Assembly: GCA_021777225.1 (NCBI GenBank)
Contig: JAJYDQ010000007.1
Location: 1 to 64,000, forward strand
From: Deltaproteobacteria bacterium
GTDB taxonomy: Bacteria; Desulfobacterota; Desulfomonilia; Desulfomonilales; Desulfomonilaceae
Direction of reading: 5' to 3'
Length of the DNA stretch: 64,000 nucleotides
Positions 32,057-44,573 of this stretch are shown here, piece by piece. Under the pieces are notes generated by a model. That model made no database searches. It was not told where the DNA came from and saw nothing but the letters and a program-made list of their open reading frames with translations. The translations under genes and the position numbers were made by a program. Each line of letters opens with the position of its first letter. Positions within the stretch are counted from its first letter, which is position 1.

Positions 32057-33166
32057 TTATATAGACAACTTAGCACTATCGTCCAGCAACTTGGCCAATT
32101 GATTGTTGTTTCTCATGTCCAGTCCAAGCGCCTCCTGCCAGATCGAGTTAGACTCCATACACAAATAAATTAGTACGTCAGCGCTGTACGACCTAATCCT
32201 TTGGGCCAGGCGCCGATAAATCGCTGTCCTGCGGTTGCGGCTCAGGCGAAGCTTGCCGTCAAGACCTGGGGCAAAAGAATCGTAGAAATATCTAATTGGC
32301 CCAAATCTCGAAGTAACAACGTCTCTGAGGTCAGGCACGAAGCGTAGGACACCCATTGAAATCCAGGCTATAGAGTCTGGTCTAACGGAATCGAAAATGG
32401 CGTCAATTGTTTTAAAATACTCTTCTTCCCAACCATCAAAGGGCACAATGGGGTCAAAGTGAAATCCAACTTTAAACCCATGAGACGCGGACTTACTGGC
32501 GGAAATTAACCTCCGTCTTAAGCTGATTGCACGAATTTCCTCAGATTTACTGAAACCAGGCGCATTAACTGAAAAACTCAATATTATATTTCGCGGATTC
32601 TGAAGATTTAACAGTGGCTCTATAAAATCAGTTTTGGTTTTGAACTCCAACGTCGCGTTATTTCGACCCAGAAATGTCTCCGCCAACGGGACCGCATAAC
32701 TCGTATAGTCATCTAATGCCAGAGAATCTGTAAATTCGCCGGTGCAAAACCTAAAAAAGTGGTCAGGAGGAGCATAAGCCAGAAAGGCCTTGAGTTGGCT
32801 TAGCATTTCTTCAAAATTTACATACACTTCCATTACAGGATTGTTAAAGTAAACCTGGAGAGCGCAATAACGGCAATCAATGGGACAACCATTGCCGATA
32901 TTGAGTATTTTCAAGCCGCAGCACAGATAGGTCTTCGTCCCTGGACAGGATTTCACAAAAGCTCCCTTGTAATTCACAAGTTTTAGGATCCTTTTCCCTT
33001 TTGCCAGCGGATCAGGGTTCATGTCGATTCGCGCCGATTCTGCATCGATTTCGGCGCCTCTTAGGACCGTAACGGATTTGACCGACCTCAAAATGCGACG
33101 GGTCACATACGATTCTTCCGCCTCCTTTTCAACCCAAATCTCGTCTATCGGGAATCTCATGCGCAA
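32057..33166 (-). CDS. Spore photoproduct lyase-like radical SAM protein
   Basis: A 369-residue radical SAM enzyme with the CPIDCRYC (CX3CX2C) cluster motif near residue 95. A further cysteine in FCTGEFTDSLALD lies where spore photoproduct lyase has its hydrogen-donor Cys. Family members (SplB and SPL-like) repair or modify DNA or unknown substrates. There is no reason to expect sporulation in this organism, so the function is open. Single gene; downstream region 31885-32056 holds no gene. Confidence 0.8.
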   Translation of the reverse strand: MRMRFPIDEIWVEKEAEESYVTRRILRSVKSVTVLRGAEIDAESARIDMNPDPLAKGKRILKLVNYKGAFVKSCPGTKTYLCCGLKILNIGNGCPIDCRYCALQVYFNNPVMEVYVNFEEMLSQLKAFLAYAPPDHFFRFCTGEFTDSLALDDYTSYAVPLAETFLGRNNATLEFKTKTDFIEPLLNLQNPRNIILSFSVNAPGFSKSEEIRAISLRRRLISASKSASHGFKVGFHFDPIVPFDGWEEEYFKTIDAIFDSVRPDSIAWISMGVLRFVPDLRDVVTSRFGPIRYFYDSFAPGLDGKLRLSRNRRTAIYRRLAQRIRSYSADVLIYLCMESNSIWQEALGLDMRNNNQLAKLLDDSAKLSI

Positions 33167-33448: not shown

Positions 33449-34411
33449 TTAACCATGTTGATAGGAATTGGGTAGTTGAAATTCGCGAATCACATTGAGG
33501 AAATCTTCAGCCCTTGAACGTGAATCCAAACGGATTTCAATTGTTACCGACTCATCCTCAAATGATTGTCCGGGTCTCAGTGAAACATTCCTGGGGGGGC
33601 GGACGTCCTGTACCCACCTTTCAAAAATGCGCCAGTTTTCGGTTATGTCAGGAAATGCCCATCTGGTGATGAGTTTTCTAAATTGAGCCACCTTTTCAGC
33701 AACTGTCAGATGGTGATCGTTTAATATTTCATCAACCTCGGGTCTACCCAGCAAATCCGTCATCGGTTGTCCCAGGTAAATTGACAAATTAAACAATTGG
33801 GAAATAACTTCAAAAGCCTTGTTTGCATTTAAACCTAATTTACCGATCAATTTCACCAGAGGGAGCCGTTGATCGTAAGGAAGCTCCGAAAGTATCGCAG
33901 CGCTCTTTTCTTGTAATCTCCCTCTGGACAACGCATCCAGCAATGATGTTTCCAGCCCACCTATCTTTCTGAGTTTTTCCAGTTTCGGACCCTTGGAAGA
34001 AATATCCAGGAATGGGAAGACTTTCTTGGCCAATGTCTCCCGAGGGACAAGTTCCAGCAGTCGTTTGACCACATATGCCCTAACAGCCGGGTCTCTCTTG
34101 ATTCTTTCAAGATTGTCCCAAAAAGCCATAATAAAAGTTTGGCCTTTCATTTGCATCGGATCGACAACGCGAACTGCAAAACTACGCGCCTTTAACGCGC
34201 AGACGGCTTCGAGTCGCCGCCTGCCCAATACGGGGATAAAACGGTGACCCGCAGTTTCTTTCACAACGGGAGGGTGGATTACACCAACTTGTTCTATTGA
34301 AGCTACAAGTGGGTCTAAAGGCTCAAATGAGGGAACATGGAAATCAATATTGTCAAGATCCAGTTGAGACGGGTCAATAATTGTTGTTCTGATATTTATT
34401 TGAGAGTTCAT
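33449..34411 (-). CDS. Orphan ParB-like N-terminal domain protein
   Basis: A 320-residue protein with a ParB/Srx-type domain at about 20-110 (PLVASIEQVGVIHPPVV, then GRRRLEAV, the CTP/DNA-contact motif), followed by a helical middle and a C-terminal domain with mixed strands. It has no ParA partner nearby and does not look like the chromosome partition ParB. It overlaps the glycosyltransferase gene by 38 bases. A DNA-binding or NTP-switch role is inferred from the fold only. Confidence 0.75.
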   Translation of the reverse strand: MNSQINIRTTIIDPSQLDLDNIDFHVPSFEPLDPLVASIEQVGVIHPPVVKETAGHRFIPVLGRRRLEAVCALKARSFAVRVVDPMQMKGQTFIMAFWDNLERIKRDPAVRAYVVKRLLELVPRETLAKKVFPFLDISSKGPKLEKLRKIGGLETSLLDALSRGRLQEKSAAILSELPYDQRLPLVKLIGKLGLNANKAFEVISQLFNLSIYLGQPMTDLLGRPEVDEILNDHHLTVAEKVAQFRKLITRWAFPDITENWRIFERWVQDVRPPRNVSLRPGQSFEDESVTIEIRLDSRSRAEDFLNVIREFQLPNSYQHG

Positions 34412-35207
34412 AATACCTTATCGCTTCTTCATCTTTTCCATGTTTTGAAAGTCCCTTGGCAAGGATTTCACATTTTTTCACCAATTCCCTTATGGCCGCT
34501 CTCCGGTAATCGGATTGCAATTCGGGGTTTTGCAGTATGTTCAGAATCGCCTGAATCCTGAATCTGTCAATTGCGGGAATGGTTTTAGAAAGTTGATCGC
34601 TTCTATCTCCATGTTTTATTACCAATGGCTCATTTACGAACTTTACCGAATGAAAAGCCGTGATGCGTAGCCAGAGGTCATAATCTTCAGCCGCTGGGAG
34701 TTCTTCATTAAACAGGCCGATTTTATCGAGTAACAGACGTGAAATCAATACAGCGGAAGGACTGATCAAGCATCTCCCAAGCGCTCTTTCAAAAAAGCGG
34801 CCACCCTGTTTCTTATGGACATTCTTTTGATTAACGACTTTCCCGTGTTTCAGCCACAGTTCGTCGGAGTGACATATGAAATTGCTATCCGCTTTATCAT
34901 AAAGCTCCAATTGCTTTTCCAGTTTGGCTTGACTCCATTCGTCATCCGAATCAAGAAACGCTATGAGCTTGCCTCGAGAAACGACAATTCCCAAGTTTCT
35001 GGCTGCGGACACGCCTTTGTGATCCTGTCTCAAGTATCGAATTGATTCCGACATTCCTGCTATCAGATCGGCGGTTGAATCCGTCGATCCGTCATCTATT
35101 ACTATAAGTTCGATGTCTTGAAAGGTTTGTTTTAAGATCGAAAGAATAGACCGAGGGAGCACATCCACTCGATTGAATGTTGGAATTATTGCGGATACCA
35201 AGGGCAT
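34374..35207 (-). CDS. Family 2 glycosyltransferase
   Basis: A 277-residue GT-A glycosyltransferase. N-terminal SAIIPTFNR, the DDGSTDST nucleotide-sugar region, and the DSDDEW metal motif (DxD-like) near residue 95 are present. A later AEDYDLWLR matches the acceptor/catalytic ED motif. It probably adds sugar to envelope polysaccharide or LPS. It overlaps the ParB-like gene by 38 bases. Confidence 0.9.
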   Translation of the reverse strand: MPLVSAIIPTFNRVDVLPRSILSILKQTFQDIELIVIDDGSTDSTADLIAGMSESIRYLRQDHKGVSAARNLGIVVSRGKLIAFLDSDDEWSQAKLEKQLELYDKADSNFICHSDELWLKHGKVVNQKNVHKKQGGRFFERALGRCLISPSAVLISRLLLDKIGLFNEELPAAEDYDLWLRITAFHSVKFVNEPLVIKHGDRSDQLSKTIPAIDRFRIQAILNILQNPELQSDYRRAAIRELVKKCEILAKGLSKHGKDEEAIRYYELSNKYQNNNY

Positions 35208-35448: not shown

Positions 35449-36966
35449 TTAACCAGCTCTTACTGACTTTTCTCTGTCCTTATCGCTACCTTTGTCATAA
35501 TGCGCCTGAATCTTTCGACAGACATCATCTTTTATTGTTTGCCATGAGCAAAATGCTGCTGTTCTAATTTGTCCCGTCTCGACATCCTCGTAAGCAAAGA
35601 CGGCTGGACAATCGTGAAGTCTGGCGTTTTCCAGGCCACCTTCATCTTCATACGGAATTGTGATTAGGGTAAGCAGTTGCTTAAAACTGGTTCGTCTTCT
35701 CAAAATTTCATCAATCTTCCTGCCTCTGGCAATGTCTACCAGAGCCTTGATTCCGTTGACGAAAGCAGGCTTGGCGAGAGACTTCCTGAGATTAATAGTC
35801 CTAGCCACAATAAAGGCTGTTTGAAGGGCCGTAGAAAGATTGAAATACCAATGCCGCCAAATCGGGGCTGATTTTACAGGCGCTTTCCCAGTTAGCTTCC
35901 GGTCTAGTTTCCGGAGCCTGGAGAGAGCTTCGGAAAGAGGAATATTAAGATATGATGAAAGAGGAACGTACTTCTCTCCATCTGAAATTACAAGTGTCGC
36001 GCTCTCACAATTCGGGTGAGACCCACCAAGGGTTTGTTTTCCGAAAAATTTGGACAGAATTTCAAATTTCATCATTCCTGTGGACACAAACTCCACATCA
36101 GGAAGAATTTTTTCAAATATGTTTTCAACGCATTCGGTTGTGGTCGGCTCCAGTTTCACATCTGAGGTCTCCCAGCATGGAGTCAGCGGAACAAAGGCCC
36201 AAACTGAAACATACTCCTTGTAACCGTGGACGAACTCCATCAATTCACCCATGTTACTGTCATTCACACCGGATGCCACGGTAGAAATTACGGCTAACTT
36301 GTTTACACCGCATTTAATCACATTTTCGAAAGCTTTCTTTTTTACAGCGAGCGAATTGTCTCCTCTGAGGGTTTTGTAAATCTCGGGTTTCGTTCCATCC
36401 AAACCGAAATTGACCTGAACGCCAAGACTGCAAAGCTCCTTACAATAGTTCATGTCCGCCAGCTTCAAACCATTTGTAAATAATTGAACCTGAAAACCAT
36501 GAGATTTCGCCAGACGCACAATTTCAATAAAATCATCATGAACAGTGGGTTCTCCGCCGAAAAAGCAGATATTCGGCTTGGGGTCCTCACTTTCAAACTC
36601 TCGAAAAATCTTTTCAAAATATTCCATTGGCGGTTTGTAAGAAAATCCCATTGCATCGACATAAGCAAGACAGATTGGACATCTCTGATTGCAAAGATTT
36701 GTGACGTCAATAGCTACAGTTGTAGGTGGCGTATGTAATTTGTGGTCACACGACTTGCAGTTCAAGGAACAGCCTGAAATGTTTGATGGTTCCTGATAGT
36801 CGGCTATTTCGCGCTTCCATCGCCATTTACGGGCGTCTTTTGTAACAAGAGAAGATGTACGGCCACAATCTTTGCAGAATTTTACAAGGTACACACAATT
36901 ATTCTTGATCTCATACCGTGCATCTGTAGGAGTTCCACAGTTCTCACATAGACCTAATTTCATCAT
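35449..36966 (-). CDS. Radical SAM protein of the MJ0619/tetraether-synthase-like class
   Basis: A 505-residue protein with ordered cysteine motifs: two CxxC pairs (C7/C10, C31/C34) forming a rubredoxin-like or zinc-ribbon site, CSLNCKSC (C66, C70, C73), and the radical SAM CNQRCPIC (C92, C96, C99). GGEP and later SAM-domain strands follow. Further cysteines in HPNCES, HDCPAV and AAFCSW may bind auxiliary clusters. The arrangement resembles the family containing MJ0619 and archaeal tetraether lipid synthase (Tes), which joins alkyl chains by C-C bonds; related enzymes methylate pterins. Which reaction applies here is unknown. It is divergent from lpxB and sits alone with its own probable promoter. 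Confidence 0.72.
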   Translation of the reverse strand: MMKLGLCENCGTPTDARYEIKNNCVYLVKFCKDCGRTSSLVTKDARKWRWKREIADYQEPSNISGCSLNCKSCDHKLHTPPTTVAIDVTNLCNQRCPICLAYVDAMGFSYKPPMEYFEKIFREFESEDPKPNICFFGGEPTVHDDFIEIVRLAKSHGFQVQLFTNGLKLADMNYCKELCSLGVQVNFGLDGTKPEIYKTLRGDNSLAVKKKAFENVIKCGVNKLAVISTVASGVNDSNMGELMEFVHGYKEYVSVWAFVPLTPCWETSDVKLEPTTTECVENIFEKILPDVEFVSTGMMKFEILSKFFGKQTLGGSHPNCESATLVISDGEKYVPLSSYLNIPLSEALSRLRKLDRKLTGKAPVKSAPIWRHWYFNLSTALQTAFIVARTINLRKSLAKPAFVNGIKALVDIARGRKIDEILRRRTSFKQLLTLITIPYEDEGGLENARLHDCPAVFAYEDVETGQIRTAAFCSWQTIKDDVCRKIQAHYDKGSDKDREKSVRAG

Positions 36967-37216: not shown

Positions 37217-38536
37217 ATGTCCCAAAATTTGGCATTCTTCAAACAAACAGTAAATGGACACGGCTCTGACCTAGTGGGATCCGTTTTGATCCTGGCTGGA
37301 GAAGCGTCAGGAGATTATCATGCCGCCTCTCTTGTAAAGGATGTGCGGCGCCAATTCCCGAACATCAGTTTTACCGGTATTGGCGGTGAAAAGCTGGAAA
37401 CAGCGGGAATGAGACTGTTGCTCCACTACAGAGATATTAACACCATTGGATTTAGTGGAGGACTTAGTAAACTTAAAAGCGTACTCGCTGCTTACAACCT
37501 GATGAAGTCAGAATTGCGTAGCGGAAAATATGATGTTTTTATTCCGGTTGATTTCCCTGATGTGAATATCCGTTTATGTAATGTCGCAAAGAAGGCTGGA
37601 GTTAAAGTCTGCTATTACATCAGTCCTCAAATATGGGCATGGCGAAAACGTCGAATCTACAAGATCGCTGCGGTGGTTGACCGGATGATGACCATATTTC
37701 CTTTTGAGGAGAAGATGTATTCCGATGTTGGCGTGCAGGCCAATTTTGTGGGCCACACCATGGTTCGGGACATTCCAGCAGAAGTCGACAAATCTTCCGT
37801 AAAATCGGAACTGGGGATTCGGGATCAACGGCCGTTAGTGACGCTCGCTCCCGGTAGCCGTAATTCTGAGATCGCCAGAGTTCTTCCCGTCATGTGTTCC
37901 GCTGCTGAATCACATCTCAGGACTTTTCCAGAAACTGAATTTGTGATTCCTCTTGCCGGCCCTCATCTCAGAGAGCTGATTCAACGTATCCTCGATGAAT
38001 CATGCTTCAACGCAAGGGTAATCCATGCCGAAACCTCCAAGATAATGGCAGCTTCTGACTATGGTCTGGTTACGTCAGGTACCGCCACTTTACAGGCTGC
38101 GCTATCTAGAATGCCTCATGCGGTTGTATACATACTCGATAAATTTTCTTGGGTTCTGGCCACCAAATTCTTGATGCCGCTCGTGATGGAACCCGACCTG
38201 CATGTTGCTATTGCAAACATGTTGTGCATTAAGGGCCAGCCTGGACCGGACAACCCTATCGAGATCATGATCAAAGAGGGCTATAGGGTTCCTTGTTTGG
38301 GATGTGGACGACCTCTGTTGGTCCCTGAAGTCCTGCAACACTTTGCCACGCCCGAAAATTTGGCTTCATGGCTAGAAAGATTCAGGACGGATTCGAATCT
38401 CAGAGCAGCAATGGAAAAGGCTTTTGTCCGTCTCAGAGAAATGCTCGAACCACTACCCTCTAACCCTTCTCCGTCGGACGCCCTCTTGGCGTTGATTTTG
38501 GAAAAACGAGGCGAAGCAACCCAACTAAAGTTTTAG
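37217..38536 (+). CDS. lpxB: Lipid-A-disaccharide synthase
   Basis: A 439-residue GT19 glycosyltransferase, slightly longer than usual (about 380) because of about 20 extra N-terminal residues and a longer C-terminus. Family motifs: AGEASGDYH near residue 30, GIGG, DFPDVNIR, YYISPQIWAWRKRR, LAPGSRNSEI and TSGTATLQAA. It condenses UDP-2,3-diacylglucosamine with lipid X to form the lipid A disaccharide at the inner membrane. It shows the cell has an LPS outer membrane. Other lpx genes are not in the window. Confidence 0.95.
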   Translation: MSQNLAFFKQTVNGHGSDLVGSVLILAGEASGDYHAASLVKDVRRQFPNISFTGIGGEKLETAGMRLLLHYRDINTIGFSGGLSKLKSVLAAYNLMKSELRSGKYDVFIPVDFPDVNIRLCNVAKKAGVKVCYYISPQIWAWRKRRIYKIAAVVDRMMTIFPFEEKMYSDVGVQANFVGHTMVRDIPAEVDKSSVKSELGIRDQRPLVTLAPGSRNSEIARVLPVMCSAAESHLRTFPETEFVIPLAGPHLRELIQRILDESCFNARVIHAETSKIMAASDYGLVTSGTATLQAALSRMPHAVVYILDKFSWVLATKFLMPLVMEPDLHVAIANMLCIKGQPGPDNPIEIMIKEGYRVPCLGCGRPLLVPEVLQHFATPENLASWLERFRTDSNLRAAMEKAFVRLREMLEPLPSNPSPSDALLALILEKRGEATQLKF

Positions 38537-41176: not shown

Positions 41177-43078
41177 CTATTTCGGCTCTAACAGACGCTC
41201 CCCGGATCGATCAACTCCATAGCCTCCCAGCGATGCGACCCGGGTTCTAAATGATTGACTGCCGATTATTTTCAGAAGTTGTATTATCTTCTCATCTTCC
41301 AAATATTTCTGTGGAACAATAAAATCATATTGTTCGGTAGCCAGTGGAATAAAATCCAACCCCAAAGCGTTTGCCGCCGCAAGGACCCCCATTCCTACAT
41401 CAGCGACGCCAGACAGTACCGATACAGCAACCGACGTGTGGGTATATTCTTCCATTTCGTAACCTTTTATATCCGAATCGTCAATGCCCATCTCATTGAG
41501 GTAATAGTCGAGTAAAACCCTGGTTCCAGCGCCTTTCTGCCGATTGACAAAAGTCACGTCATTTCTGGTCAGGTCATGGAATCCGCGAATATTTTTAGGG
41601 TTACCCTTCTTTACCATAAAACCTTGTTCACGCATTACTCCGTGGAATACTCCAACAGGAACATCCGGGATGAACTTCCTGATATAGGACCAGTTGTAAA
41701 TTCCTGTGTCTGCATCAAGCAGGTGGCTTGTAGCGACATGTGCGGTGTCATTCCTTAGCGCCAGTAATCCCGACAGGCTACCTACATTACTCGATGAAAC
41801 ATACACGCCATGTTTTAGAAGTTCATCGGCCAGGCAATCTATCGTTAAGTCGTGACTACCTATTATCACAAGCGTGTTTTCTATTTGTTGAGGTTGACTG
41901 AGCAGCTCCACTTCAACCATAGATCCTTGTTCAATGCCTTCGCTGTTTAATGGAATTCGAATTATCCCGTCAGCGCGAGTGAGTGTCGTGATGGATCCCG
42001 CACCCCTAGGTAATGGAGCAGCGACATTCCTACCACCCACTTTGCCCAATTTGACCCTGAAAAACTCCTCTCTTCCTAACTTTGAAGGGACCTTTCGTAC
42101 TGAAAACGCCGAGATGGTCGGCCTGTTATATTCAGGGATCCCCAGCATCCATGAAATGACAGGTAATCCAAATATTTCAAATGAAAATACAGCCGACACA
42201 GGGTAACCCGGTGTCCCAATTACCGGTTTCCCCTTGATTATTCCCAGAATGGTCGGCTTGCCCGGCATCATGGCTACGCCGTGAACAAGGATCTCCCCAA
42301 GCTCAGCAATTATTGAGGCTGTGTAATCCTCACTACCCGCCGATGAACCCGCATTTACAACAATAATGTCGTTTCCGGCTTCTACACCAGATTTTACGGC
42401 TTCTCGAATCATAGCATAGTCGTCGGGAACAATATCGACGGTAACGGGCGCACCGCCTGCTTGAGAGACCAGACCGCCAAGTATGTGGGTGTTAAACTCT
42501 ATGGATTGGCCAAAATCCGGAGGTTGATTCTCCAACCGCTTGGCTGAAAAAAGTTCTGATCCGGTTGGAATTAATAATACCCTTGGTTTCCTAACGACCC
42601 CGATTTTGGTCACTCCACCACACAATAAGGCTCCTATATCATACGCAGATATAATATGGCGGCCAGGCAATATCATTTCGGACTGAACAAAATCTTCTCC
42701 CACCCGACGAACATTTTCCCATGGAACCAACGCCTTCTCAATTTCGAAAGTTTCGTCGTTCACGAAATTAACGTGTTCAATCATTATAACGGCATTTGTT
42801 CCCGGCGGTATTGGCCGTCCAGTGTTCACGGGCCAGGCGCTTTCACCTATTACAAAATCAAGAACGGTGTCCGGCGCGGCTCCAAATGTGCTGGACGCAT
42901 TGACGGCAAAACCATCCATCGCCGCAGTATGGAAACTCGGTGATGACAGCTTGGCGTAAACAGGCCGCGATGTGACCCTGCCAAATGACTTAACTGTTCG
43001 AATCTTTTCCGATCCCGGAGAGTTTTTCCTGCCCAGACGCCCCAAAAGAATTTCCAGGGCCTCCGCAGGTGGTTTCAT
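41177..43078 (-). CDS. MoeA fused to a C-terminal periplasmic-binding-protein-like domain
   Basis: The 633-residue protein has a MoeA core (about 1-400; TAAMDGFAV, VGEDF, GSSAGSEDYT, GTPGYPVSA) followed by a PBP-like domain (about 410-630) of the kind seen in molybdate/tungstate-related proteins. MoeA inserts molybdenum or tungsten into MPT-adenylate; the PBP-like domain may bind a metal oxyanion or act as sensor. The start at 43078 (GGAG directly before ATG) overlaps the upstream MoeA gene by 89 bases. A GTG at 43168 would give 30 more residues without family character. Confidence 0.88.
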   Translation of the reverse strand: MKPPAEALEILLGRLGRKNSPGSEKIRTVKSFGRVTSRPVYAKLSSPSFHTAAMDGFAVNASSTFGAAPDTVLDFVIGESAWPVNTGRPIPPGTNAVIMIEHVNFVNDETFEIEKALVPWENVRRVGEDFVQSEMILPGRHIISAYDIGALLCGGVTKIGVVRKPRVLLIPTGSELFSAKRLENQPPDFGQSIEFNTHILGGLVSQAGGAPVTVDIVPDDYAMIREAVKSGVEAGNDIIVVNAGSSAGSEDYTASIIAELGEILVHGVAMMPGKPTILGIIKGKPVIGTPGYPVSAVFSFEIFGLPVISWMLGIPEYNRPTISAFSVRKVPSKLGREEFFRVKLGKVGGRNVAAPLPRGAGSITTLTRADGIIRIPLNSEGIEQGSMVEVELLSQPQQIENTLVIIGSHDLTIDCLADELLKHGVYVSSSNVGSLSGLLALRNDTAHVATSHLLDADTGIYNWSYIRKFIPDVPVGVFHGVMREQGFMVKKGNPKNIRGFHDLTRNDVTFVNRQKGAGTRVLLDYYLNEMGIDDSDIKGYEMEEYTHTSVAVSVLSGVADVGMGVLAAANALGLDFIPLATEQYDFIVPQKYLEDEKIIQLLKIIGSQSFRTRVASLGGYGVDRSGERLLEPK

Positions 43079-44357
43079 CTCCAGAAAAATACTCCTTCTC
43101 AAAGTCGTCTCCCATCCAATTGGAAAATAGATAAACTGTGACTGTTCGCCCCTTGTAATATCCTTCACAGCCTACTGGAATTTTCAGATAAGCATGAGAT
43201 CTCGGCATGGCTGAGACCATTCCGGATTTGGCCATAAAAGGGGTCGCAAGATATTGATCTCCAACTCTGGACAGTTTCACTCGAACAAAGTCTAGACGCC
43301 CTTCCTTTGAAGCGACATTGCGCGTCAGACTCGCTCGTATTTGTGGCCTCAGGAAAGGTTGGAGCGAGCCTTCACCCGCAAGACGTCGTATAATCGGTAC
43401 AACTAATTGATCGAAACAAACCAAGGCTGAGATCGGATGTCCAGGCAAACCTACAACAGGTTTTGAATCGATCAACCCTAAAATTAGAGGTTTACCAGGC
43501 GACATCGATACTCCGTGCGCAAGGATTTTCGAGTCCGGCGCTTCTGAAATTGCCTGAATAACATAGTCCCTGCTGCCCATGGAACTGCCTCCCGATATTA
43601 TTACAACATCAGATTGTTCCAGGCCGGACCTGATTAAAGTCGAAACCGATTTAAGAGTATCCCCCGCCAACCCCATCCACATTGGCTCGGCAAAAACCTC
43701 CCTGATACCGGCAAACAGAGAATGTCGATTTACATCTCTAACACATCCAGGTGGAGGCGTCTGATCCGCGGGAACTATTTCATCTCCGGAACTGATAAGG
43801 GCGACTTTGGGGGAGCGATGAACCTTAACCTTTGTAACTCCAAGTGACGCAAGCAGTCCAAGGTCTTGCGGCTTAAGTCGCAATCCGGCGTTGAGCAAAA
43901 CTTCTCCCTTTCGATAGTCTTCACCTCTCCGGACCATGTTGTCAAAAGGCGCCACAGCTTTAAGAACCTGCAGAGAGTTCCCTCCCAAGTCCTCGGAGTA
44001 TTCTATCATTACCACTGAGTCGGCGTTAGCCGGCAACACACCCCCGGTCCAAATTTTTACCGCCTCCCCCCGCTTCAGTTTCATTTTGGGAAACTCGCCC
44101 ATGGGAACTTCACCAACAACATTGAAAAGCGATGGAGAACTCTCTGTAGAACCGAAAGTGTCAATAGATCTAACTGCATAGCCATCCATAGTTGCGCGGT
44201 CAAAAGCAGGAGAGTCCTGGTCGGCCCTTATGGCTTCCGCCAAAACCCTGAAAAGGGCACCGTCCAGTTCGGCAAACTCTGCCCCAAGCGGTTTTACAAT
44301 TTGCAATCCAGCTTTTGCCTCGTCAAGAGACACGACTCGAAAAAAAGGCTTCAACAT
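42990..44357 (-). CDS. moeA: Molybdopterin molybdenumtransferase MoeA
   Basis: A 455-residue MoeA: PAFDRATMDGYAV near residue 45, GEVPMGEFP, VRRGEDYR, SGGSSMGSRDYV and GLPGHPISALVCFDQ. The C-terminus extends about 30 residues past the usual end and overlaps the next gene. ATG 44357 is chosen over 44432 because the earlier residues are unlike the family. Two adjacent MoeA paralogues, one with a PBP-like domain, suggest separate handling of molybdate and tungstate, as in other anaerobes. This is inference. Confidence 0.9.
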   Translation of the reverse strand: MLKPFFRVVSLDEAKAGLQIVKPLGAEFAELDGALFRVLAEAIRADQDSPAFDRATMDGYAVRSIDTFGSTESSPSLFNVVGEVPMGEFPKMKLKRGEAVKIWTGGVLPANADSVVMIEYSEDLGGNSLQVLKAVAPFDNMVRRGEDYRKGEVLLNAGLRLKPQDLGLLASLGVTKVKVHRSPKVALISSGDEIVPADQTPPPGCVRDVNRHSLFAGIREVFAEPMWMGLAGDTLKSVSTLIRSGLEQSDVVIISGGSSMGSRDYVIQAISEAPDSKILAHGVSMSPGKPLILGLIDSKPVVGLPGHPISALVCFDQLVVPIIRRLAGEGSLQPFLRPQIRASLTRNVASKEGRLDFVRVKLSRVGDQYLATPFMAKSGMVSAMPRSHAYLKIPVGCEGYYKGRTVTVYLFSNWMGDDFEKEYFSGDETTCGGPGNSFGASGQEKLSGIGKDSNS

Positions 44358-44573
44358 GATAATAATTCTCAGTTTTGAAGGTTCTAGGAATGATTTGATA
44401 ATAAGTATATCAATTGGACCTTTCAGTGTCAAAATTGCCCTGCTTTTTTAAACGCATTGGCATATGATTGACAATCAAAAGAAATGGATTCCGAGACTTG
44501 ATCACAATTTGGCTATGATGATTCAAGCTGACTTTCGAAGTCTTGAACAAACAAAAGGGTGTGAATTTTTGCT

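What the first reader, a model, noticed from the sequence alone, without database searches (positions are those of the whole stretch)
35449..36966. Tes/MJ0619-like radical SAM protein in a bacterium
The order CxxC, CxxC, CX3CX2C, then the radical SAM CX3CX2C closely matches the family that includes archaeal tetraether lipid synthase. Bacterial homologues may make membrane-spanning or cross-linked lipids. The gene is divergent from lpxB, so a lipid role would fit the neighbourhood.
Basis: partly seen in the sequence, partly recalled or inferred. Interest (0 to 1): 0.7.

Follow-up and report, generated by a model that had tools for sequence, protein, structure and literature searches.

The report
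Tes-fold radical enzyme with altered cluster
A sulfate-reducing bacterium and its whole family carry an iron-sulfur radical enzyme with the same overall build as the archaeal enzyme that welds membrane lipids together, but it belongs to a separate, uncharacterised bacterial branch with changed active-site residues, so it probably modifies some hydrophobic chain in a way that is not yet known.

Summary
In detail: a 505-aa radical SAM protein lies at 35449-36966 on the minus strand, with CxxC, CxxC, CX3CX2C and radical SAM CX3CX2C in that order, head-to-head with the genome's only lpxB. It resembles the archaeal tetraether synthase Tes/GDGT-MAS (MJ0619 is that same enzyme, not a pterin methylase) over its full length. 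A model built without any Tes sequence has GDGT-MAS as its closest solved structure (E 9e-30, TM 0.75; next MoaA, TM 0.35). It is not a Tes: 161 bits against a cut-off of 450. It falls in a separate, well-supported clade (100/100, long stem) of 33 sampled sequences from Desulfomonilaceae, one other Desulfobacterota and about 5% of sampled Phycisphaerae. Two of these genomes also carry a true Tes. The clade keeps three cysteines for each auxiliary cluster. Its labile Met439 position is always Ile/Leu, Tyr459 is always Phe, and the rubredoxin site has four Cys. The enlarged helical cap and two operon-like links to PEMT/ICMT methyltransferases favour a lipid or other hydrophobic substrate; membrane-spanning lipids are possible but unsupported. 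lpxB adjacency holds in 15 of 16 Desulfomonilaceae loci and was not seen in Phycisphaerae. Verdict: new variant of a known kind, testable in Desulfomonile tiedjei DSM 6799.

The parts
35449..36966 (-). Radical SAM protein of the Tes/TrsS superfamily, 505 aa
   Evidence: ORF; 7TOL phmmer 2.4e-37; Pfam; fold search 7TOM/7TOL TM up to 0.75
36865..36948 (-). N-terminal rubredoxin-like domain, Cys4 site C7/C10/C31/C34 (Tes has Cys3His)
   Evidence: alignment; Tes ligands C9, C12, C33, H36 from PMC9433317
36742..36771 (-). N-terminal auxiliary cluster motif C66-X3-C70-X2-C73 with nearby His75
   Evidence: alignment; Tes [Fe4S4]N ligands C73, C77, C80 + His
36670..36693 (-). Radical SAM cluster motif C92-X3-C96-X2-C99
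   Evidence: Pfam Radical_SAM 88-246; alignments
36007..36009 (-). C320 in the HPNCES motif, first Cys of the C-terminal auxiliary cluster
   Evidence: invariant in the 33-row clade alignment
35692..35937 (-). Predicted helical cap (residues 344-425) at the position of the lipid-pocket helices of GDGT-MAS
   Evidence: AF2 secondary structure; linker lengths compared
35647..35658 (-). I437-P-Y-E440: position of labile Met439 of Tes replaced by Ile/Leu, followed by invariant Pro and near-invariant Glu
   Evidence: alignments
35548..35610 (-). C-terminal cluster Cys C453 and C473 with F457 at the position of Tes Tyr459
   Evidence: alignments
37217..38536 (+). lpxB, the only copy in the genome, head-to-head with the rSAM gene
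   Evidence: Pfam; single copy; synteny in 15 of 16 loci
34374..35207 (-). Family 2 glycosyltransferase, downstream neighbour on the same strand, conserved in 8 of the 16 loci examined
   Evidence: Pfam
33449..34411 (-). ParB-N-like protein, conserved neighbour, but widespread in the phylum without the rSAM gene
32057..33166 (-). Spore-photoproduct-lyase-like radical SAM protein, conserved neighbour in part of the family

Best explanation
It is a membrane-associated radical SAM enzyme built like archaeal tetraether synthase. A 5'-deoxyadenosyl radical made at the C92/C96/C99 cluster takes a hydrogen from an unactivated carbon of a long hydrophobic chain lying under the helical cap, and the C-terminal [4Fe-4S] cluster receives the resulting carbon radical, as in Tes. 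In this clade that cluster keeps three cysteines but has lost the labile methionine, so it probably has a permanently open or differently ligated iron (the near-invariant Glu440 is a candidate). The product is therefore probably not the Tes product but another bond at an alkyl carbon of a bacterial lipid (a cross-link, a thiolation or a desaturation). Shown: sequence family, predicted fold, metal-ligand pattern, clade. Inferred: membrane association, substrate, radical transfer, product.
For: Full-length match to GDGT-MAS by profile (2.2e-170 with a profile that includes Tes) and by fold from a clade-only model (E 9.1e-30, TM 0.75 over 510 columns; next best MoaA TM 0.35). Three Cys for each of the RS, N and C clusters and a four-Cys rubredoxin site are conserved in the clade. 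The region between C320 and C453 is longer (110 aa) and more hydrophobic than in Tes (about 92) and much more than in TrsS (76); in GDGT-MAS the second lipid pocket is made of amphipathic helices (PMC9433317). PEMT/ICMT membrane methyltransferases lie directly downstream on the same strand in two distant genomes (G462, G384). Conserved head-to-head with lpxB in 15 of 16 Desulfomonilaceae loci, the rSAM gene itself better conserved than lpxB.
Against: No substrate, product or lipid of any host was tested. Met439 and Tyr459 are replaced in all 33 members, so a Tes-type radical-storage step may not operate, although Tes Y459F/L variants are active (PMC9433317). Phycisphaerae neighbourhoods are not conserved and include thioredoxin-fold and rhodanese lipoproteins rather than lipid genes. 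The helical cap is only modestly hydrophobic in the window protein itself. No model coordinates were available, so cluster geometry and pocket shape were not measured.
Confidence: 0.5

Rival explanations
1. Bacterial membrane-spanning-lipid synthase: it joins two fatty-acyl tails end to end, giving diabolic-type acids or brGDGT precursors.
For: Tes fold and helical cap; Tes accepts bacterial phosphatidic acid in its pocket (PMC9433317); anaerobic hosts.
Against: Separate clade, Tes cut-off missed by far, Met439/Tyr459 lost, true Tes present beside it in G462 and G124. The experimentally supported bacterial enzyme Mss comes from Thermotoga maritima (PMC11604127), whose genome has no protein with this family's N-terminal domain.
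Confidence: 0.2
2. Lipid thiolation or sulfur insertion: the enzyme stops at, or regenerates from, the C-S bonded stage that Tes passes through.
For: Tes under one equivalent of SAM yields a sulfur-bearing lipid (PMC9433317). Rhodanese, thioredoxin-fold or class-V aminotransferase genes adjoin several homologues.
Against: The thioredoxin and rhodanese neighbours look like exported lipoproteins and are limited to a few Phycisphaerae. Desulfomonilaceae loci have none. Sulfur donor unknown.
Confidence: 0.12
3. Modification of lipid A or another outer-membrane glycolipid in Desulfomonilaceae (acyl cross-link or chain modification), explaining the fixed pairing with lpxB and a glycosyltransferase.
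For: Head-to-head with the single-copy lpxB in 15 of 16 loci; GT2 downstream in half of them.
Against: lpxB was not recognised near the Phycisphaerae or G462 homologues. Other synteny in the family is also substantial (HAD/GreA beside lpxB). The ParB-like neighbour is general to the phylum.
Confidence: 0.15
4. Not a lipid enzyme: a maturase acting on a peptide, quinone or other cofactor that has re-used the Tes scaffold, as TrsS may do.
For: Most SPASM-like multi-cluster radical SAM enzymes act on peptides or cofactors (general knowledge); TrsS, a related family in the same genome, has no lipid role known to me; active-site changes.
Against: No precursor peptide or cofactor gene recurs beside it; the cap is hydrophobic and Tes-sized or larger, unlike TrsS.
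Confidence: 0.2

Closest known systems
Tetraether synthase Tes / GDGT-MAS (MJ0619; PDB 7TOL, 7TOM; NCBIfam NF045702)
   Same: Domain order (rubredoxin-like, [Fe4S4]N, RS barrel, helical cap, [Fe4S4]C), three Cys per cluster, full-length fold (TM 0.75)
   Different: 22-26% identity; 161 bits vs cut-off 450; Met439 to Ile/Leu, Tyr459 to Phe, Cys4 rather than Cys3His rubredoxin site, longer cap; separate clade, and co-occurs with true Tes in two genomes
TrsS radical SAM (seleno)protein (NCBIfam NF045646)
   Same: Same superfamily, same N-terminal domains; also encoded in this genome (split at contig ends C48/C124) and in D. tiedjei
   Different: TrsS keeps the Met at the 439 position and has a shorter linker (76 aa); the window protein scores 152 bits vs cut-off 490
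Mss, bacterial membrane-spanning lipid synthase
   Same: Published AlphaFold superposition reports Tes-like catalytic architecture (PMC13274423)
   Different: Its source genome T. maritima has no PF23545 N-terminal domain; sequence not held here, so no direct comparison
Gms, GMGT synthase
   Same: Radical SAM enzyme joining sp3 carbons of membrane lipids
   Different: C-terminal SPASM domain with two four-Cys clusters and an N-terminal helical domain, cap on the opposite side (PMC11186832)

Membership tests
Radical SAM superfamily | CX3CX2C cluster motif in a partial TIM barrel | tested here: met
   C92/C96/C99; Pfam PF04055 3.6e-22; models
Tes superfamily (Tes/TrsS/this clade) | PF23545 N-terminal ribbon plus full-length GDGT-MAS fold | tested here: met
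   PF23545 30.3 bits vs 27; Foldseek top hits 7TOM/7TOL, E 3e-30 to 9e-27
Tetraether synthase Tes (NF045702) | Score above the curated cut-off of 450 bits | tested here: not met
   160.8 bits; positive controls L025 557 and L087 723
Tetraether synthase Tes (NF045702) | Labile [Fe4S4]C ligand Met439 and Tyr459, invariant in archaeal Tes | tested here: not met
   Ile437/Phe457; Ile or Leu and Phe in all 33 clade rows, Met and Tyr in all 12 Tes rows
Tetraether synthase Tes (NF045702) | Rubredoxin site with ligands C9, C12, C33, H36 | tested here: not met
   Cys in place of His36 in every clade row that covers it
Tetraether synthase Tes (NF045702) | Placement among Tes in a tree | tested here: inconclusive
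   Own clade at 100/100 and outside Tes (96/97); AU test does not reject a grouping with two bacterial Tes rows, p 0.2
Tetraether synthase Tes (NF045702) | Couples two lipid chains | not testable with these tools
   needs biochemistry or lipidomics
TrsS (NF045646) | Score above the curated cut-off of 490 bits | tested here: not met
   151.9 bits; D. tiedjei TrsS control 673.5
Mss | Homology to T. maritima Mss | tested here: inconclusive
   Indirect only: no PF23545 protein in T. maritima; Mss sequence and its paper not held
Pterin methylase (class D, old MJ0619 annotation) | Pterin-binding methyltransferase activity | not testable with these tools
   The reference enzyme was reassigned to tetraether synthesis (PMC9433317)

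The most novel reading that the evidence does not exclude
A third functional branch of the tetraether-synthase superfamily in Gram-negative bacteria that performs a previously unknown C-H functionalisation of membrane lipid chains (for example cross-linking or thiolation of phospholipid or lipid A acyl tails) with an auxiliary cluster permanently open at one iron.
Probability: 0.25. Interest if true: 0.8.

Novelty: new variant of a known kind. Interest (0 to 1): 0.55.

Why it matters
Bacterial Tes homologues are being used to guess which bacteria make membrane-spanning lipids, which underpin climate proxies, and the papers read here report none with confirmed activity (PMC8941075, PMC11868695). 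This clade shows that motif or fold resemblance alone would over-assign that role: it is Tes-shaped but lacks the residues invariant in archaeal Tes, and it sits beside a true Tes in some genomes. If it does act on lipids, it would add a new chemistry to bacterial membranes, and a cultured host (Desulfomonile tiedjei DSM 6799) makes it directly testable.

Tried and rejected
Pterin methylase: rejected because the reference annotation was withdrawn in PMC9433317. Plain bacterial Tes: rejected on profile cut-off and motif, with the tree in agreement. Strong claim for lipid A from lpxB: weakened because other homologues show no lpxB beside them. TrsS membership: rejected by score. Cys483 as the missing fourth ligand of the C-terminal cluster: rejected, conserved in Desulfomonilaceae but absent in the Phycisphaerae rows. 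A transmembrane helix in the cap: only a few members exceed a 19-residue Kyte-Doolittle mean of 1.6, so not claimed. AU test against a grouping with bacterial Tes: not rejected (p 0.2), so origin from a bacterial Tes stays open. Direct comparison with Mss failed because neither its sequence nor its paper is held. ParB-like neighbour as functional partner: homologues occur across the phylum without the rSAM gene. Plasmid tblastn gave only partial, 23-30% matches among the rows listed.

Full report
Observation. The gene is at 35449-36966 on the minus strand and encodes 505 aa. The four cysteine motifs reported are present in the stated order. The protein matches Pfam Radical_SAM and the N-terminal ribbon named for MJ0619 (PF23545), and its best solved relative by sequence is GDGT-MAS, the tetraether synthase of M. 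jannaschii (7TOL, 2.4e-37). MJ0619, GDGT-MAS and Tes are one family: the pterin methylase annotation of MJ0619 was tested and could not be corroborated (PMC9433317).

Host. The family of the window genome includes Desulfomonile tiedjei DSM 6799. G010 has a 26,923-base second contig whose first 12,000 bases are 100% identical to plasmid NC_018026.1 of that strain, and it falls in the same family code as the window. The family is Desulfomonilaceae. 16 of 17 other sampled family members carry an orthologue at 66-93% identity (one is in two pieces); the exception, G017, is 86% complete. In 395 genomes sampled across the phylum only family members and one other genome, G462, have the type, while 15 of 298 sampled genomes of the class of a Phycisphaerae MAG do.

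Family. NCBIfam's Tes model gives 160.8 bits against a cut-off of 450 and TrsS 151.9 against 490. Positive controls pass: bacterial Tes L025 557, archaeal Tes 723, D. tiedjei TrsS 673. A maximum-likelihood tree of 53 proteins puts the window protein in a 33-row clade (Desulfomonilaceae, Phycisphaerae, G462, and two rows from an unnamed bacterial bin, G100) at 100/100 with a stem of 2.8 changes per column, apart from Tes (96/97) and TrsS (100/98). The origin is not settled: an AU test does not reject the clade grouping with two bacterial Tes rows (p 0.2). G462 and G124 each encode a true Tes (579 and 565 bits) beside proteins of this clade, so the two are paralogues that are not mutually exclusive and probably do different work.

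Anatomy. Compared with GDGT-MAS ligands (PMC9433317): the rubredoxin site is C7/C10/C31/C34, with Cys where Tes has His36. The N-terminal auxiliary cluster has C66/C70/C73 with a histidine shortly after in the rows that cover it, at varying spacing. The radical SAM cluster is C92/C96/C99. The C-terminal cluster has C320/C453/C473. The labile ligand Met439 corresponds to Ile437 and is Ile or Leu in all 33 clade rows. Tyr459 corresponds to Phe457 and is Phe in all. All 12 Tes rows keep Met and Tyr, and TrsS keeps Met. Pro438 is invariant and Glu440 nearly so. The stretch between C320 and C453 is longer and on average more hydrophobic than in Tes, and clearly more so than in TrsS.

Structure. AlphaFold2 with a 29-row alignment gave pLDDT 85, pTM 0.85, and with clade members only pLDDT 88, pTM 0.87. 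Foldseek against the PDB returned 7TOM and 7TOL first in both cases, with TM up to 0.75 over about 510 columns; the next hit, MoaA, aligns over only about 235 columns (TM 0.35). The second run shows that the match does not depend on Tes rows in the alignment.

Neighbourhood. lpxB, the only copy in the genome, is head-to-head in 15 of 16 Desulfomonilaceae loci, and a family 2 glycosyltransferase follows in 8. Synteny of the region is generally high, and the ParB-like neighbour occurs across the phylum without this gene, so co-function is not shown. In Phycisphaerae the flanks vary. Recurrent neighbours are thioredoxin-fold and rhodanese lipoproteins. In two distant genomes (G462, G384) a PEMT/ICMT-type membrane methyltransferase, in G462 fused to a rhodanese domain, lies directly downstream on the same strand.

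Mechanism. Shown: family, predicted fold, cluster cysteines, replaced residues, distribution. Inferred from Tes biochemistry: reductive SAM cleavage, hydrogen abstraction from an unactivated carbon, and transfer of the carbon radical to the C-terminal cluster. The loss of the labile Met suggests a permanently open or differently ligated iron and hence a different product. The substrate is most likely a hydrophobic chain. Which one is unknown.

Comparison. The experimentally supported bacterial coupling enzyme Mss was taken from T. maritima (PMC11604127) and is reported to resemble Tes in architecture (PMC13274423). T. maritima has no PF23545 protein, so Mss is unlikely to belong to this clade, but its sequence could not be compared. 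Gms has a different SPASM architecture (PMC11186832). The homology thresholds used for bacterial Tes surveys (E below 1e-50, PMC8941075) would probably leave this clade out (inference; local BLAST E-values against archaeal Tes are about 1e-36 to 1e-44).

Verdict. An uncharacterised third branch of the Tes superfamily: new variant of a known kind. Lipid action is plausible, membrane-spanning lipid synthesis is not established, and a cultured host exists for the test.

Noticed in passing
window genome contigs C48 (5-721) and C124 (5-718): A TrsS-like radical SAM gene is apparently split across two contig ends in the own genome; D. tiedjei has it intact above the TrsS cut-off.
   Followed up: partly
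window 37217-38536: LpxB carries an unusual CLGCGRPLL-type stretch near its C-terminus, a possible small insertion with a CxxC motif.
   Followed up: no
window 41177-44432: Two MoeA-like genes in tandem, the first apparently with a C-terminal binding-protein-like domain.
   Followed up: no
window 32057-33166: Spore-photoproduct-lyase-like radical SAM protein next to a ParB-like protein and a GT2 in a Gram-negative sulfate reducer; the trio is conserved in part of the family.
   Followed up: partly
L079, L080 (Patescibacteria MAG KR11_N3): Two Tes proteins with all archaeal signature residues fall inside the Tes clade; possible mis-binned archaeal contigs or transfer.
   Followed up: no
L085 (labelled Candidatus Nitrosotalea) versus L081 (Methanophagales): Nearly identical Tes sequences in a thaumarchaeal MAG and a Methanophagales MAG suggest contamination of one bin.
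   Followed up: no
L151 2166-3500 and L135 4383-6536: Membrane PEMT/ICMT methyltransferases, one with a rhodanese domain and one extended by a condensation-like region, directly downstream of clade members.
   Followed up: partly
L141 7965-8489, L128 2777-3316, L133 1739-2341, L136 7464-7934: A thioredoxin-fold lipoprotein lies directly upstream of the rSAM gene in four Phycisphaerae genomes.
   Followed up: partly
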